Of a DNA stretch of 64,000 nucleotides, positions 6,461-64,000 are shown piece after piece (the stretch's first letter is position 1; each line of letters opens with the position of its first letter). The notes below the pieces were generated by a model. The model saw nothing but the letters and a program-made list of their open reading frames with translations, made no database searches and had not been told where the DNA came from. Origin of the DNA: Psychromonas sp. CD1 (GTDB taxonomy: Bacteria; Pseudomonadota; Gammaproteobacteria; Enterobacterales; Psychromonadaceae); assembly GCF_002239585.1 (NCBI RefSeq), contig NZ_NDFH01000003.1, forward strand, positions 1,116,001-1,180,000, read 5' to 3'. A program made the translations under genes and the position numbers.

Positions 6461-7092
6461 TAAATTTCCATAGAAAATACTGGCAAGAGAACATAACTTA
6501 ATTTACGCTGTGCATTAACAATTAATTAAACTTCTTCTGTGGAGAACCCTATGCGTTTAATTCCTTTAAATAATGCATCTGATGTAGGCCTATGGTCTGC
6601 TCGCTATATCGTTAATGCCATCAATAAGTATGCCCCTACAACAGATAACCCTTTTATTCTCGGCTTACCTACAGGAGGCACCCCTCTCGCAACTTATAAG
6701 CGCTTAATTGAGCTCCATAATTTAGGCGAAGTTAGTTTTGAATATGTGGTGACCTTTAATATGGATGAATATGTAGTAAATTTCCATAGAAAATACTGGC
6801 AAGAGACCACAACTTAATTTACGCTGTGCATTAACAATTAATTAAACTTCTTTTGTGGAGAACCGTATGCGTTTAATCCCTTTAAATAATGCATCTGATG
6901 TAGGCCTATGGTCTGCTCGCTATATCGTTAATGCCATCAATAAGTTTGCCCCTACAACAGATAACCCTTTTATTCTCGGCTTACCTACTGGAGGCACCCC
7001 TCTCGCAACTTATAAGCGTTTAATTGAGCTCCATAATTTAGGCGAAGTTAGTTTTGAATATGTGGTGACCTTTAATATGGATGAATATGTAG
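6461..7092 (+). repeat. 316-bp direct tandem duplication (nagB 5' region)
   Basis: Unit 1 is 6461-6776 and unit 2 is 6777-7092. Each contains about 90 nt of nagB leader, the ribosome site GTGGAGAACC and the first ~75 codons of nagB. By eye the two differ at only about eight positions (for example CCCT/CCGT just before the ATG), so the duplication is recent or kept similar. The left boundary lies immediately after the CRP site, which is therefore not duplicated. Confidence 0.95.
6551..6817 (+). pseudogene. nagB: Truncated 5' copy of nagB
   Basis: The first copy in the tandem duplication. It starts at ATG 6551 behind GGAG and encodes [20 protein letters not shown] through TFNMDEYV, identical to the intact gene except for one residue by eye (KYAPT versus KFAPT). 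It then runs into the duplicated leader and stops after [13 protein letters not shown] at 6817, 88 aa in all. It lacks the catalytic Asp/His/Glu of the [13 protein letters not shown] segment, so it cannot be an active deaminase. It is the copy nearest the promoter and CRP site, so the full gene presumably depends on read-through past it. Confidence 0.92.
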
Positions 7093-7667
7093 GCATTTCG
7101 CCCTCTCATCCTGAAAGTTATCATAGTTTTATGTTTGAAAATTTTTTTGATAAGATTAATATTCGCCCTGAAAACATTAACCTACTTGATGGTTTAGCAA
7201 GCGATTTAGAAGTGGAATGTCAGCGTTATGAAGATAAAATAAAAAGCTACGGAAAAATTCATTTATTTATGGGGGGTGTTGGTATTGATGGGCATATTGC
7301 CTTTAATGAACCAGCATCATCACTCGCATCACGTACCCGCGTTAAAACATTAACGCCTGAAACACGCCAAGCAAACTCTCGTTTCTTTAACAATGATATC
7401 GAGCAAGTTCCAAAGTTGGCACTTACTATTGGCGTAGGGACTCTTCTTGATGCACAAGAAGTACTGATTTTAGTTAGTGGTCAAAATAAAGCATACGCTT
7501 TACACGCGGCCGTTGAAGGCTCGGTAAACCATCTATGGACAATATCTGCTTTACAGTTACATCCACGATCAATTATTGTTTGTGACGCACCATCGACTCT
7601 AGAGCTCAAAGTAAAAACATTAAAATATTTTAATGACTTAGAAATTGACAATATTCACAATATTTAA
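6867..7667 (+). CDS. nagB: Glucosamine-6-phosphate deaminase (intact copy)
   Basis: Converts glucosamine-6-P to fructose-6-P and ammonia, the last step of amino-sugar catabolism. It is 266 aa from ATG 6867, exactly the E. coli length. Visible are LGLPTGGTP (phosphate loop, about residue 37-45), [10 protein letters not shown] with catalytic Asp72, and [13 protein letters not shown] carrying Asp141, His143 and Glu148. In that motif E. coli has Asn where this protein has Ile, between Gly and Asp. GGAG six bases before the ATG fixes the start. nagA follows after 119 nt. Confidence 0.97.
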
Positions 7668-7786
7668 TGATCACATCGGCTTAGATTAAATTACGCAGAG
7701 CACCCTTTAATCTATTCTTTCATGCTCTCGAGGAAAAGAGCTAGCCCCTCCTAATAGAGCAGACTCTAACTAAGGACATTTTATCC

Positions 7787-8923
7787 ATGTACGCACTTAC
7801 TAACTGCACGATTTATACATCACAAAAGATCTTAAATGAACATGCCATCATTATTGAAAATGATCTCATTAAAGAAATTATCTGTAATGAAAATCTTAAA
7901 AAACATATTAAATGTATTGATCTACAAGGTGCGAATATCAGCGCTGGTTTTATTGATTTACAACTTAATGGTTGTGGTGGGGTAATGCTTAATGGAGCAG
8001 AAACTGAAAAAACCCTAGAAATAATGCAAGCGACCAATCTAAAGTCAGGAACAACGAGTTATCTTCCCACTTTTATTACGGATGCAGATGAAGGTATCAA
8101 ACGCATGCTCAAAGTTACCCGTAATTATATGCAAAAACATAAAAATGAAGTATTAGGCCTACATCTAGAAGGACCTTATTTAAGCATTGAAAAAAAAGGC
8201 ATCCATTGTCCTGAATATATTCGCGAAGCCGATCCTGACATGATCCACCATATCTGCCAAAACAGTGATGTCGTTAGTATTTTAACATTAGCCCCCGAAA
8301 ATAATTCTAAAGAAACTATTCAGGCACTTTGTAATAGTAATATCATCGTGGCACTCGGCCACACTAATGCCACTTACGCACAAGCCAAAGAAGGTATTGA
8401 TAATGGAATTAGTTGCGCAACACACCTATTTAATGCAATGACATCAATGGAGGGTAGAGCCCCTGGCGTCATCGGAGCTATTTATGATAATAACATTTAT
8501 GCTGGCGTTATTGTCGATGGTTTCCATGTGGCTTATGAAAGTATTCGTATCTCTAAAAAAATAATGGGTGAAAAACTTTATTTAGTAACCGATGCCACCG
8601 CAGCAGCAGGAAGCAATATTGATTCATTTGACTTTGTTGGCACTACGATTAACTATAAAAGTGGGAAATGCACCGGACCTGATGGGTCATTGGGTGGATC
8701 TGCGGTTACTATGATTGAGTCCATTCAACAAATGGTCAAATTTGTCGGAGTTGAATTAGACGAAGCACTGCGTATGGCAACCCTTTACCCGGCTAAAGCT
8801 ATTTCCGTCGATCATAGACTAGGAAGTATCATGCCGGGTAAGATTGCAAACCTCGCTGTTTTTACCTCTGATTACAAAGTATTGGCTACTATCGTAAACG
8901 GTAACTATAACGCCACAATATAA
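7787..8923 (+). CDS. nagA: N-acetylglucosamine-6-phosphate deacetylase
   Basis: Amidohydrolase that removes acetate from GlcNAc-6-P, producing the substrate of NagB. It is 378 aa (382 in E. coli). Metal- and substrate-binding signatures occur in order: SAGFIDLQLNGCGG near 55-70, LHLEGPYLS near 125, LGHTNATY near 190, ATHLFNAMTSMEGR near 210, and catalytic Asp in LVTDATAAAGS near 265. The ribosome site AAGGACATTT precedes ATG 7787. It is second in nagB-nagA-nagC. Confidence 0.97.
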   Translation: MYALTNCTIYTSQKILNEHAIIIENDLIKEIICNENLKKHIKCIDLQGANISAGFIDLQLNGCGGVMLNGAETEKTLEIMQATNLKSGTTSYLPTFITDADEGIKRMLKVTRNYMQKHKNEVLGLHLEGPYLSIEKKGIHCPEYIREADPDMIHHICQNSDVVSILTLAPENNSKETIQALCNSNIIVALGHTNATYAQAKEGIDNGISCATHLFNAMTSMEGRAPGVIGAIYDNNIYAGVIVDGFHVAYESIRISKKIMGEKLYLVTDATAAAGSNIDSFDFVGTTINYKSGKCTGPDGSLGGSAVTMIESIQQMVKFVGVELDEALRMATLYPAKAISVDHRLGSIMPGKIANLAVFTSDYKVLATIVNGNYNATI

Positions 8924-55777: not shown

Positions 55778-57292
55778 ATGTCAGAGTCAAATATCACACA
55801 AGAAGAAATCAGTTTTAATCAGTTAAACTTACCTGAAGCACTACTACAAGTTGTGTCCGAAATGGGTTACGAAACGCCTTCTCCTATCCAAGCTAAGTGT
55901 ATTCCACACTTATTAAAAGGTGAAGATGTTTTAGGTTTAGCACAAACAGGTACCGGTAAAACAGCAGCCTTTGCTTTACCATTACTTGCTAATATCGATC
56001 TTTCATTAAATTATCCACAAGTATTAGTATTGACACCAACACGTGAACTTGCAATCCAAGTTGCAGAAGCATTCCAAAGCTACGCACGTCACCTACCAGG
56101 TTTCCACGTGATGCCTATCTACGGTGGTCAAAGCTATAACATTCAATTTAAACAATTACGTCGCGGACCGCAAGTTGTTGTGGGTACACCGGGTCGTATT
56201 ATGGATCATCTTAAACGTAAAACATTAGATTTATCTAAATTAAGTACTCTCGTTTTAGATGAAGCAGATGAAATGCTACGCATGGGATTCATTGATGATG
56301 TTGAAACCATCATGAAAGAGATGCCTGAAAAACATCAAACTGCACTTTTCTCTGCAACCATGCCTGATCAAATTAAACGTATTACTAAACGTTACATGAA
56401 TGCACCGATTGAAGTAAAAATTAAAGCTAAAACATCAACAGTTGAAAATATCGAACAAAAATGTTGGATTGTGCGTGGTGTCAACAAATTAGACGCACTA
56501 ACTCGTATGCTTGAAACTGAAGAGTATGATGGCGTAATAATTTTTGCACGTACTAAAACAGCAACGGTCGAACTTGCAGAACGCTTAGAAGCTCGTGGTT
56601 ACCGAAGCTCGCCATTAAATGGTGATATGAATCAACAAACACGTGAACGTACTATTGCACGCATAAAATCAGGTGGCTTAGATATTTTAGTCGCAACAGA
56701 TGTTGCTGCACGCGGTCTAGATGTTGAACGTATTAGTTTAGTTGTTAACTACGATATTCCAACAGATACAGAATCTTATGTACATCGTATTGGTCGTACA
56801 GGCCGAGCTGGGCGTAAAGGTAAAGCGATTTTATTTGTCGCACCACGTGAACGTCGTTTACTAAAAGCAATTGAACGCGCAACGCGCCAAGAAATCGCTA
56901 TCATGGAATTACCAACACGTGATGAAGTAACACAAACACGTATCGAGAATTTCCAAAAACAATTAATGAATATTTGTGAAAGTGAAGATTTATCTTTCTT
57001 CCGTAACTTATTTTCACAAATTGAAAAAAATAGTGAGCTTAGTGAGCTCGATCTTGTTTCTGCATTGTTGTTCATGGCACAAAAAGAAAAACCTTTACAG
57101 CCAGTTGAAGAAAAATTTGTAGAGCCCCGCACACATGAACGCAGTTTTGATCGTGATAGTCGTGGACGTGGCAGAGATCGTGGTGATCGCAGCGATCGCA
57201 ACAGTCGTGGTGATCGCGGTTCTCGCGGTTCTCGCGAACGTAGTACAGATGCTGAACCATCGGCTTATCAGCAATTTTATGCAGTACTTTAG
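55778..57292 (+). CDS. deaD: Cold-shock DEAD-box RNA helicase DeaD/CsdA, C-terminally truncated
   Basis: RNA helicase for ribosome assembly and mRNA decay in the cold. The helicase core is complete: Q motif with [12 protein letters not shown], motif [12 protein letters not shown], Ia [57 protein letters not shown], followed by the dimerisation region to about residue 435 and an Arg/Gly/Asp-rich linker ([20 protein letters not shown]). At 504 aa it lacks the RNA-binding (RRM-like) domain that follows this linker in E. coli (629 aa). The last ~12 codons (ending [10 protein letters not shown]) are antisense to a glmU fragment, so the original 3' end was replaced. Confidence 0.93.
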
Positions 57293-61673: not shown

Positions 61674-63203
61674 ATGTTAATTGCTAAAAAACCACTTTTA
61701 TTATTAATCATGGATGGTTGGGGATATCGCCCAGACATGCCCGATAACGCAGTAGCAAATGCTCGAACCCCTGTCCTTGATAAGCTTTGCAAAGACTATG
61801 CAAACACCCAAATATCAGCTTCGGGAATGGATGTTGGCTTACCTGATGGACAAATGGGAAATTCAGAAGTAGGTCACACAAATATTGGTGCAGGTCGCAC
61901 GGTTTACCAAAATTTAACCAAAGTGACGAAATCAATTAAAGATGGTGATTTTTTTACAAATGACGTATTAGTTTCTGCTATTGATAAAGCCGTACAGTCC
62001 AACAAAGCAGTACATATTATGGCTCTTGCCTCTCCAGGTGGTGTACATAGCTTTGACGAACATATTTTAGCGGCGATTGAACTAAGTGCAAAACAAGGTG
62101 CTAAAAAAATATTTGTACATGCCTTTTTAGATGGCCGCGATACGCCACCGCGCAGTGCAGCCTCTACTTTACAAAAATTTGAAGATAAATATAAAGCACT
62201 TGGTGTAGGTCGCACCGCAACATTAATTGGCCGTTACTACGCATTAGATCGAGATACACGCTGGGATAGAGTGCAAGAAGCTTATGATCTATTAACGTTA
62301 TCAAAAGCCGATTTCCATGCTGAAAATGCATTGCTGGGTCTAGAAAATGCATACACTCGCGATGAAAATGATGAATTTGTTAAAGCGACTGTTATTGGTG
62401 AAAAAGCCGCCATTGAAGATGGCGATACATTATTATTTTTAAATTTCAGAGCGGATCGTGCGCGTGAAATATCGTATGCATTTTGTGATGCCAATTTCAA
62501 TGGATTTAAACGCGAAGCTACGCCTAATATCACCTTTGCCACACTCACAGAATACGCAAAAAATATTCTAGCGCCTGCGGCATACCCAAGTGAGTCGTTA
62601 CAAAATACTTTAGGTGAATGGTTAGCCGATCATAATAAAACGCAACTGCGTATTTCAGAAACAGAAAAATATGCACACGTTACCTTTTTCTTCAATGGTG
62701 GCATTGAAGATGAGTTTAAAGGCGAAGATCGCATACTCATAAAATCACCAGCCGTGGCAACTTATGATCTGCAACCTGAAATGAGTTCAGAAGAGCTAAC
62801 TGAAAAATTAACAAAAGCTATACGTAGCCAAAAATATGATGTTATTATTTGTAACTATCCAAATGGTGACATGGTTGGTCACACCGGTGTCTATGAAGCT
62901 GCAGTGAAAGCTTGTGAAGCCGTTGACCATTGTATCGGTCAAGTGATTGAAGCATTAAAAGAGGTCGATGGTGAATGTTTAATCACTGCGGATCATGGCA
63001 ATGCTGAACAAATGATAGATCCTAATACGGGCGGAATACACACAGCGCACACTAACTTACCGGTTCCATTTATTTATGTGGGTCGTAAAGCCAGTATGAC
63101 TGAAAATGGTCGCTTATGTGATATTGCACCGACCATGCTCAAATTATTGGACTTAGAGATCCCAACTGAAATGACTGGTAAAGCACTTATTTCATTAATA
63201 TAA
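61674..63203 (+). CDS. gpmI: Cofactor-independent phosphoglycerate mutase
   Basis: Interconverts 3- and 2-phosphoglycerate with two Mn ions. It is 509 aa from ATG 61674 (SD AGAGGATTTAT); a longer frame back to 61593 is not supported. Alkaline-phosphatase-superfamily motifs: [11 protein letters not shown] at 8-18; catalytic Ser in [16 protein letters not shown] near 60-75; [14 protein letters not shown] near 150; [12 protein letters not shown] near 395; [13 protein letters not shown] near 440. Same gpmI-envC order as E. coli. Confidence 0.97.
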
Positions 63204-63302: not shown

Positions 63303-63410
63303 ATGATTGATCTACGCTCTCAAAATTCTTTGCAAACAAAAACAATATCTTATATTCATTTGTTTTTATTTTTGTTTTTATTTTTATCCACACCCCAAAC
63401 CTGTGCGAAT
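63303..63410 (+). pseudogene. Truncated 5' end of an envC-like gene
   Basis: The ATG at 63303 begins MIDLRSQNSLQTKTISYIHL, followed by an alternating Leu/Phe hydrophobic core and STPQTCAN, a clear signal peptide with a cleavage site near TCAN. Position directly after gpmI fits envC (murein hydrolase activator), but no mature EnvC sequence remains: from about 63410 base composition jumps and the frame runs into a vector polylinker and stops at 63476. An upstream start at 63252 is possible. Confidence 0.55.
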
Positions 63411-63446
63411 CCCATCCCCACCCGTGCTCTTCGCGCAGCAGATTCG

Positions 63447-63478
63447 ATTCGAGCTCGGTACCCGGGGATCCTCTAGAG
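63447..63478. other. Cloning-vector polylinker sequence
   Basis: 32 bases identical to the pUC-type multiple cloning site: ATTCGAGCTCGGTACCCGGG then GATCCTCTAGAG, containing SacI, KpnI, SmaI, BamHI and XbaI sites in the vector order. The preceding ~35 bases (about 63411-63446, GC-rich, with GCTCTTC) fit neither flank and may be adapter. This is not native sequence. Confidence 0.93.
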
Positions 63479-63494
63479 ATTTAATATTAAATAT

Positions 63495-64000
63495 ATTGAG
63501 CCTGCGTTCCTGCTGGCACTCGACAGACAGCCCGAACTGATCACCGAAGCGCTGAAAAATAACATTATGCTGGTCAGCCCCACCACGCTACTGGTGGCGT
63601 TACGTACCATTGCCAACCTGTGGCGCTATGAGCACCAAAGCCGTAACGCGCAGCAGATTGCCGATCGCGCCAGCAAGCTGTACGACAAAATGCGGCTGTT
63701 TGTGGACGATATGTCCTCGGTGGGGCAAAGCCTGGATCGCGCGCAGGATAACTACCGCCAGGCGATGAAAAAACTCTCCTCCGGGCGTGGCAATTTGCTG
63801 GCGCAGGCGGAGGCGTTTCGCAGCCTGGGGGTGGAAGTTAAACGCGAGATTAATCCGGAACTGGTGGAGCAGGCTACCGCTCAGGACGAAGAGTTTCGTC
63901 TGCGTGAAGGCGACGGTAAGCAAAATAGCCGCAATGAAGACAACGATTTAGCGGCGAGTTTATCCCCCGAAGCGCAGCCGGCGCGTTTCTTTCACGGTGG
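63495..64000 (+). CDS. rmuC: RmuC C-terminal part from an enterobacterium (foreign, runs off the window)
   Basis: An open frame with no stop to the window edge encodes EPAFLLALDRQPELITEALK, NNIMLVSPTTLLVALRTIAN, LWRYEHQSRNAQQIADRASK, then LYDKMRLFVDDM and EAFRSLGVEVKREINPELVE. This is nearly the E. coli RmuC sequence (DNA recombination protein, limits inversions), residues about 300 on, with a longer C-terminus than E. coli. GC content is well above 50 % with enteric codon use, unlike the rest of the window. Its 5' part is missing; the junction lies at 63479-63495. Confidence 0.93.
   Translation, partial: MEPAFLLALDRQPELITEALKNNIMLVSPTTLLVALRTIANLWRYEHQSRNAQQIADRASKLYDKMRLFVDDMSSVGQSLDRAQDNYRQAMKKLSSGRGNLLAQAEAFRSLGVEVKREINPELVEQATAQDEEFRLREGDGKQNSRNEDNDLAASLSPEAQPARFFHG

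What the first reader, a model, noticed from the sequence alone, without database searches (positions are those of the whole stretch)
63410..64000. Vector polylinker and enterobacterial rmuC joined to the end of the chromosome segment
A 32-base pUC-type polylinker (five restriction sites in vector order) separates an AT-rich marine-type chromosome from a GC-rich gene fragment almost identical to enteric RmuC. The simplest reading is a clone or assembly chimera, vector plus library-host or contaminant DNA. A transfer event would not carry a polylinker. Any gene-context claim across this point would be false.
Basis: partly seen in the sequence, partly recalled or inferred. Interest (0 to 1): 0.8.

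Follow-up and report, generated by a model that had tools for sequence, protein, structure and literature searches.

The report
Cloning-vector read pasted into genome
The strange stretch is not biology: it is a whole sequencing read of a cloned, misprimed PCR product (vector plus Enterobacter DNA) pasted into a deep-sea symbiont genome to 'close' a gap, hiding a missing piece of chromosome.

Summary
Window 63386-64000 is the first part of a ~1.06 kb clone read: noisy start, EcoRI-to-XbaI arm of a pUC-type vector, T/A junction, a 24-nt PCR primer, an Enterobacter hormaechei-like rmuC 3' end (539/553 bases), the same primer inverted, SalI-to-HindIII arm, lacZ-alpha. The same product (601/601 identical, other vector orientation) lies in a second place, and three further clone reads sit elsewhere. 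At the four vector sites the nearest relative, Psychromonas CNPT3, has 8-39 kb that is missing here. Size and contig number identify the genome as Psychromonas sp. CDP1 (mSystems 2018), whose Methods describe gap closing by PCR, pMD18-T cloning, Sanger sequencing and manual linking. The Enterobacter genomes match the primer only at its 3' end: mispriming. It is not E. coli library-host DNA (best 82.7%). An artefact, then, with a documented cause. Its consequence matters more: four joins of a published 'nearly complete' reduced genome carry vector, and the CNPT3 segment missing behind this one holds recA and mutS, so gene absences near these joins should not be read as genome reduction.

The parts
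61674..63203 (+). gpmI (name recalled), last intact chromosomal gene before the false join
   Evidence: ORF; 90% protein identity to G010 (CNPT3)
63303..63385 (+). start of envC, cut off by the join
   Evidence: collinear with CNPT3 up to window 63385 / CNPT3 2704573; the CNPT3 ORF there scores best to murein hydrolase activator EnvC, below the curated cut-off
63386..63450 (+). noisy bases, read as the start of a Sanger read, ending in a garbled EcoRI side
   Evidence: inference: no match to CNPT3 here; the same garbled 'gattcgattcgagctcgg' precedes the arm at the C3:214.5k site
63451..63480 (+). vector arm SacI-KpnI-SmaI-BamHI-XbaI-GAT, up to the T overhang at 63481
   Evidence: the same arms with the same T/A junction in plasmid record GQ149348; pMD18-T is the vector named in PMC5893861
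63482..63505 (+). 24-nt PCR primer, also inverted at the other end of the insert and natively at C3:7110-7133
63506..64000 (+). misprimed PCR product: rmuC 3' part from an Enterobacter hormaechei-like genome (rmuC stop at window-equivalent 64004; the insert core goes on to window-equivalent 64058)

Best explanation
An assembly artefact made during gap closing. A single primer, probably designed at a contig end of the symbiont near aspA, misprimed on Enterobacter DNA in the template, its 3' bases annealing at both ends of an rmuC fragment. The product was TA-cloned into a pUC18-type T vector (pMD18-T in the paper), Sanger-sequenced, and the whole untrimmed read was placed between two contigs whose CNPT3 counterparts lie 39 kb apart. 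Shown here: vector arms, T/A junction, primer at both ends, donor identity, the boundary between primer and donor, the same product in a second place, and the missing collinear DNA. Stated by the paper: PCR, pMD18-T, Sanger, manual linking. Inferred: that this genome is that paper's assembly (by size and contig number), that the template carried Enterobacter DNA, where the primer was designed, and that the hole reflects unassembled DNA rather than a true deletion.
For: Read layout at four sites (whole-genome vector searches). Primer 24-mer at both ends of the rmuC and sbcC inserts and natively at C3:7110-7133. rmuC 539/553 and sbcC 754/781 identical to E. hormaechei DSM 14563. Donor and insert part inside the primer: 8, 6 and 9 contiguous 3' bases at three ends; at the fourth (rmuC left) 9 of the last 10 with one mismatch in DSM 14563 and 8 contiguous in two other Enterobacter genomes. 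Same 601-nt product at two sites in opposite vector orientations. In CNPT3 the flanks of the four vector sites lie 39 kb, 8-18 kb, 16 kb and 8 kb apart. G010 = 3,052,410 bp, the length printed for CNPT3 (PMC3668011); G000 = 1,688,234 bp in 3 contigs against 1,688,241 bp in three contigs for CDP1 (PMC5893861). Methods: pMD18-T, Sanger, 'manually linked', eight gaps closed.
Against: The paper's primer list was not seen. It is odd that products of one primer stand in three different gaps (C3:214k, 444k, 1179k). The insert at C3:866.9k lacks this primer. The right end of the sbcC insert lacks one A at the vector junction, which I take for a base-call error. No read data were available.
Confidence: 0.96

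Rival explanations
1. Library-host (E. coli) chromosomal DNA carried over with the vector.
For: Vector and enteric DNA lie side by side.
Against: The best of 621 matching E. coli genomes (of 5426) is 82.7% over 56% of the query; the sbcC insert matches 1 of 5426 at 80.6% over 84% (near mode). Enterobacter hormaechei gives 97.5% and 96.5%.
Confidence: 0.01
2. A real insertion in the living symbiont: horizontally transferred enteric DNA or an engineered cassette.
For: The segment is continuous with the chromosome in the held contig, and the inverted 24-mers look superficially like terminal repeats.
Against: Polylinker, lacZ-alpha and further pUC-type sequence with error-rich read ends; donor homology ends inside the 24-mer; at the vector sites 8-39 kb of CNPT3 sequence is replaced, not merely interrupted; a cloning step with this kind of vector is in the Methods.
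Confidence: 0.01
3. Contamination of the Illumina metagenome itself with vector and Enterobacter DNA, joined by the assembler rather than by hand.
For: Vector and Enterobacter DNA can occur in reagents (established knowledge, not tested here).
Against: Blocks of about 1 kb that start next to the polylinker and grow error-rich at their ends, primer-flanked inserts, and the reported manual linking of pMD18-T Sanger reads.
Confidence: 0.02

Closest known systems
Untrimmed TA-cloning vector (pMD18-T, pUC18-derived) in finished assemblies
   Same: EcoRI...XbaI-GAT-T / A-ATC-GTCGAC...HindIII arms around a PCR insert; the same arms are in plasmid record GQ149348
   Different: Here whole clone reads, insert included, were kept and used as joins between contigs
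Single-primer mispriming PCR product
   Same: Same primer at both ends, donor match limited to the 3' bases
   Different: Nothing of principle; the wrong product was accepted as gap sequence
Psychromonas sp. CDP1 assembly NDFH00000000 (Zhang et al. 2018, PMC5893861; text parts 1-4 of 6 read)
   Same: Three contigs, 1.688 Mb, gap closing with a vector of the type found here
   Different: The paper gives 99.3% completeness by 139 single-copy genes; the genome table here gives 79.91%

Membership tests
pMD18-T / pUC18-type T-vector clone | pUC18 polylinker order on both sides of the insert | tested here: met
pMD18-T / pUC18-type T-vector clone | T/A site between XbaI and SalI (GAT-T ... A-ATC-GTCGAC) | tested here: met
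   flanks; same arms in GQ149348. That this is pMD18-T itself rests on recall and the paper's Methods; no vector file was held
pMD18-T / pUC18-type T-vector clone | insert can go in either way round | tested here: met
   rmuC product in opposite vector orientations at two sites
Single-primer mispriming product | same primer at both ends | tested here: met
   2 of 2 insert kinds read to both ends, rmuC and sbcC; the third, puuP-like, shows the primer at one end only
Single-primer mispriming product | donor matches only the primer's 3' bases | tested here: met
   3 of 4 ends with 6-9 contiguous bases; the fourth 9 of the last 10 in the nearest strain, 8 contiguous in two others
Horizontal transfer / mobile insertion | insertion between otherwise adjacent host sequence | tested here: not met
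   flanks are 39 kb apart in CNPT3
E. coli library-host DNA | near-identity to E. coli | tested here: not met
   82.7% best

The most novel reading that the evidence does not exclude
A material share of the gene loss reported for the hadal symbiont CDP1 is assembly loss: near-universal genes such as recA and mutS (in the CNPT3 segment behind this join) and glmU (at a vector-free join inside the window) were never assembled rather than lost, so the published picture of genome reduction needs redoing.
Probability: 0.5. Interest if true: 0.5.

Novelty: not a real feature. Interest (0 to 1): 0.25.

Why it matters
The feature itself is ordinary contamination. But four joins of a genome published as nearly complete carry vector, where the paper reports eight closures in all, and three of them (C3:214k, 444k, 1179k) hold products of one primer with no collinear CNPT3 sequence between the flanks. 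Operon and absence claims near them are unsafe: rbsB and rbsK, which follow rbsC in CNPT3, lie in the missing segment at the C3:445k site, recA and mutS in the one at this site. Foreign rmuC, sbcC and puuP-like fragments stand in the sequence as if they were symbiont DNA.

Tried and rejected
Looked for the 24-mer as a widespread linker or mobile-element end: 0 loci in genome contigs for the 25-mer (records of the window's own genome may be left out there). Considered an inverted-repeat element because identical ends recur: rejected by the donor comparison. Considered rRNA operons as the cause of the contig breaks: an Rfam scan of CNPT3 stretches covering three of the four vector-site gaps gave 6 hits, rnpB and five tRNAs, none inside a gap and no rRNA (the C3:866.9k gap was not scanned). 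The donor of the puuP-like insert was not settled: best E. coli DNA match 77.8% over 49%, best plasmid-collection protein matches 81-88% in Klebsiella and E. coli records. recA: no match in G000, but no positive-control genome was in that call; the query comes from CNPT3. The palindrome between galK and rbsD I take, from recall, for a sugar-operon operator rather than a linker; CNPT3 has it too. No correction or later paper on CDP1 was found in the held library (searches; listings only), which lacks most subscription journals. A search for pMD18-T with vector contamination or gap closing gave 4 papers; besides the CDP1 paper none was opened.

Full report
What is there. Window 63386-64000 is the beginning of a block that continues past the window; the vector match stops at about C3:1180442 and CNPT3-like sequence resumes at C3:1180505. 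In order: AT-rich chromosome with gpmI and the first codons of envC; about 65 noisy bases; SacI, KpnI, SmaI, BamHI, XbaI; the junction GAT-T; a 24-mer at 63482-63505; an rmuC 3' end; the 24-mer inverted; A-ATC-GTCGAC, PstI, SphI, HindIII and lacZ-alpha; then rlmJ of the host. GC goes from 0.235 to 0.54-0.585 at the join. The names gpmI, aspA and lacZ-alpha are recalled; rmuC, rlmJ, sbcC and puuP come from calls.

It is not alone. Whole-genome searches of G000 with the join, the two vector arms and the first C3:214k clone find four vector sites: C3 about 214.45-216.04k (two clone reads back to back, the first with a puuP-like insert, the second with the same rmuC product), 444.58-445.72k (sbcC insert), 866.91k (one arm and a phage terminase insert; 9 phage records matched, 8 of them from Vibrio lentus at 69-70% identity) and this one. 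The 24-mer also stands at C3:7110-7133 just upstream of aspA, the only place found without vector; I infer that the primer was designed there. The rmuC product is identical over 601 of 601 bases at both sites but lies the other way round in the vector, as non-directional TA cloning gives.

Donor and mechanism. The best 80 of 409 relatives were kept from one genome-contig scan, and all 80 were scored against the insert core. On DNA the core is 539 of 553 identical to E. hormaechei DSM 14563, and 525, 523 and 517 of 553 to three other Enterobacter genomes; E. coli reaches 82.7% on the part that aligns. The sbcC core is 754 of 781 identical to the same strain and 727 of 781 to E. quasihormaechei. 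Donor and insert part inside the primer at every end: after 8 bases at the rmuC right end, 6 and 9 at the sbcC ends; at the rmuC left end DSM 14563 matches 9 of the last 10 bases with one mismatch, and two other Enterobacter genomes match 8 without a break. That is the signature of one primer priming falsely at both ends. The E. coli row is poorly aligned at the right end and is not used.

Identity of the genome. The nearest relative G010 has 3,052,410 bp, the printed length of Psychromonas CNPT3 (PMC3668011, whole text). G000 has 1,688,234 bp in 3 contigs; the paper on Psychromonas sp. CDP1 from the gut of the amphipod Hirondellea gigas, Challenger Deep, gives three contigs and 1,688,241 bp (PMC5893861, parts 1-4 of 6 read). 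Its Methods: 11 contigs ordered against other Psychromonas genomes, PCR across gaps, pMD18-T cloning, Sanger sequencing, output 'manually linked', eight gaps closed. The arms found here are T-vector arms; the same arms surround the insert of GQ149348.

What the joins hide. In CNPT3 the flanks of this join are 39 kb apart (2704573 to 2743699), those of the others 8-18 kb (C3:214k; the right flank there is one of several similar chemoreceptor genes), 16 kb (C3:445k) and 8 kb (C3:867k). The 39 kb hold, by NCBIfam, envC (below cut-off), dusA, a leucyl aminopeptidase, recA, a cinA-type amidase and mutS (on its first 408 residues only, below the whole-protein cut-off). recA had no match in G000 (no positive control in that call). 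rbsB and rbsK lie in the C3:445k gap. Together these gaps are about 72-82 kb of a size difference of 1.36 Mb, so they do not by themselves undo the genome reduction. The rest was not mapped genome-wide; inside the window there are several vector-free collinear deletions. Of 66 CNPT3 ORFs of at least 100 aa along the window, 48 are present in full, 3 in part and 15 absent from the window, envC and glmU among the 15. The vector-free deletion at 57234-57249 takes glmU and about 15% of a DEAD-box helicase, which looks more like a misjoin than like gene loss. The completeness given here is 79.91% against 99.3% in the paper; the methods may differ.

Verdict. An artefact with a documented cause, confidence 0.96; low interest as biology, of some use as a correction to a public genome.

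Noticed in passing
window 57234-57249: Against CNPT3 a vector-free join removes glmU entirely and the last ~15% of a DEAD-box helicase; glmU is normally essential (recalled), so this may be a second misjoin. Not checked whether glmU lies elsewhere in the genome.
   Followed up: partly
L017 2540-2590 (C3 about 441550): galK is cut and joined directly to a 28-base palindrome that also stands before rbsD in CNPT3; 1.6 kb shorter than CNPT3.
   Followed up: partly
L014 2420-3540 (C3 about 866920-868040): A vector arm without the 24-mer is followed by a phage terminase region, about 70% identical to Vibrio lentus phages; no CNPT3 match for this insert. Its origin is open.
   Followed up: partly
L018 4081-5608 (C3 about 7080-8607): aspA (name recalled) is inverted relative to CNPT3, and the breakpoint lies at the native primer site; possibly another gap closure.
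   Followed up: partly
L149 (GQ149348; also GQ149343, GQ149346): Plasmid records filed as E. coli plasmids from giant panda match pUC-type vector; the arms of GQ149348, the only one read, are those of a T vector; they may be cloning vectors themselves.
   Followed up: partly
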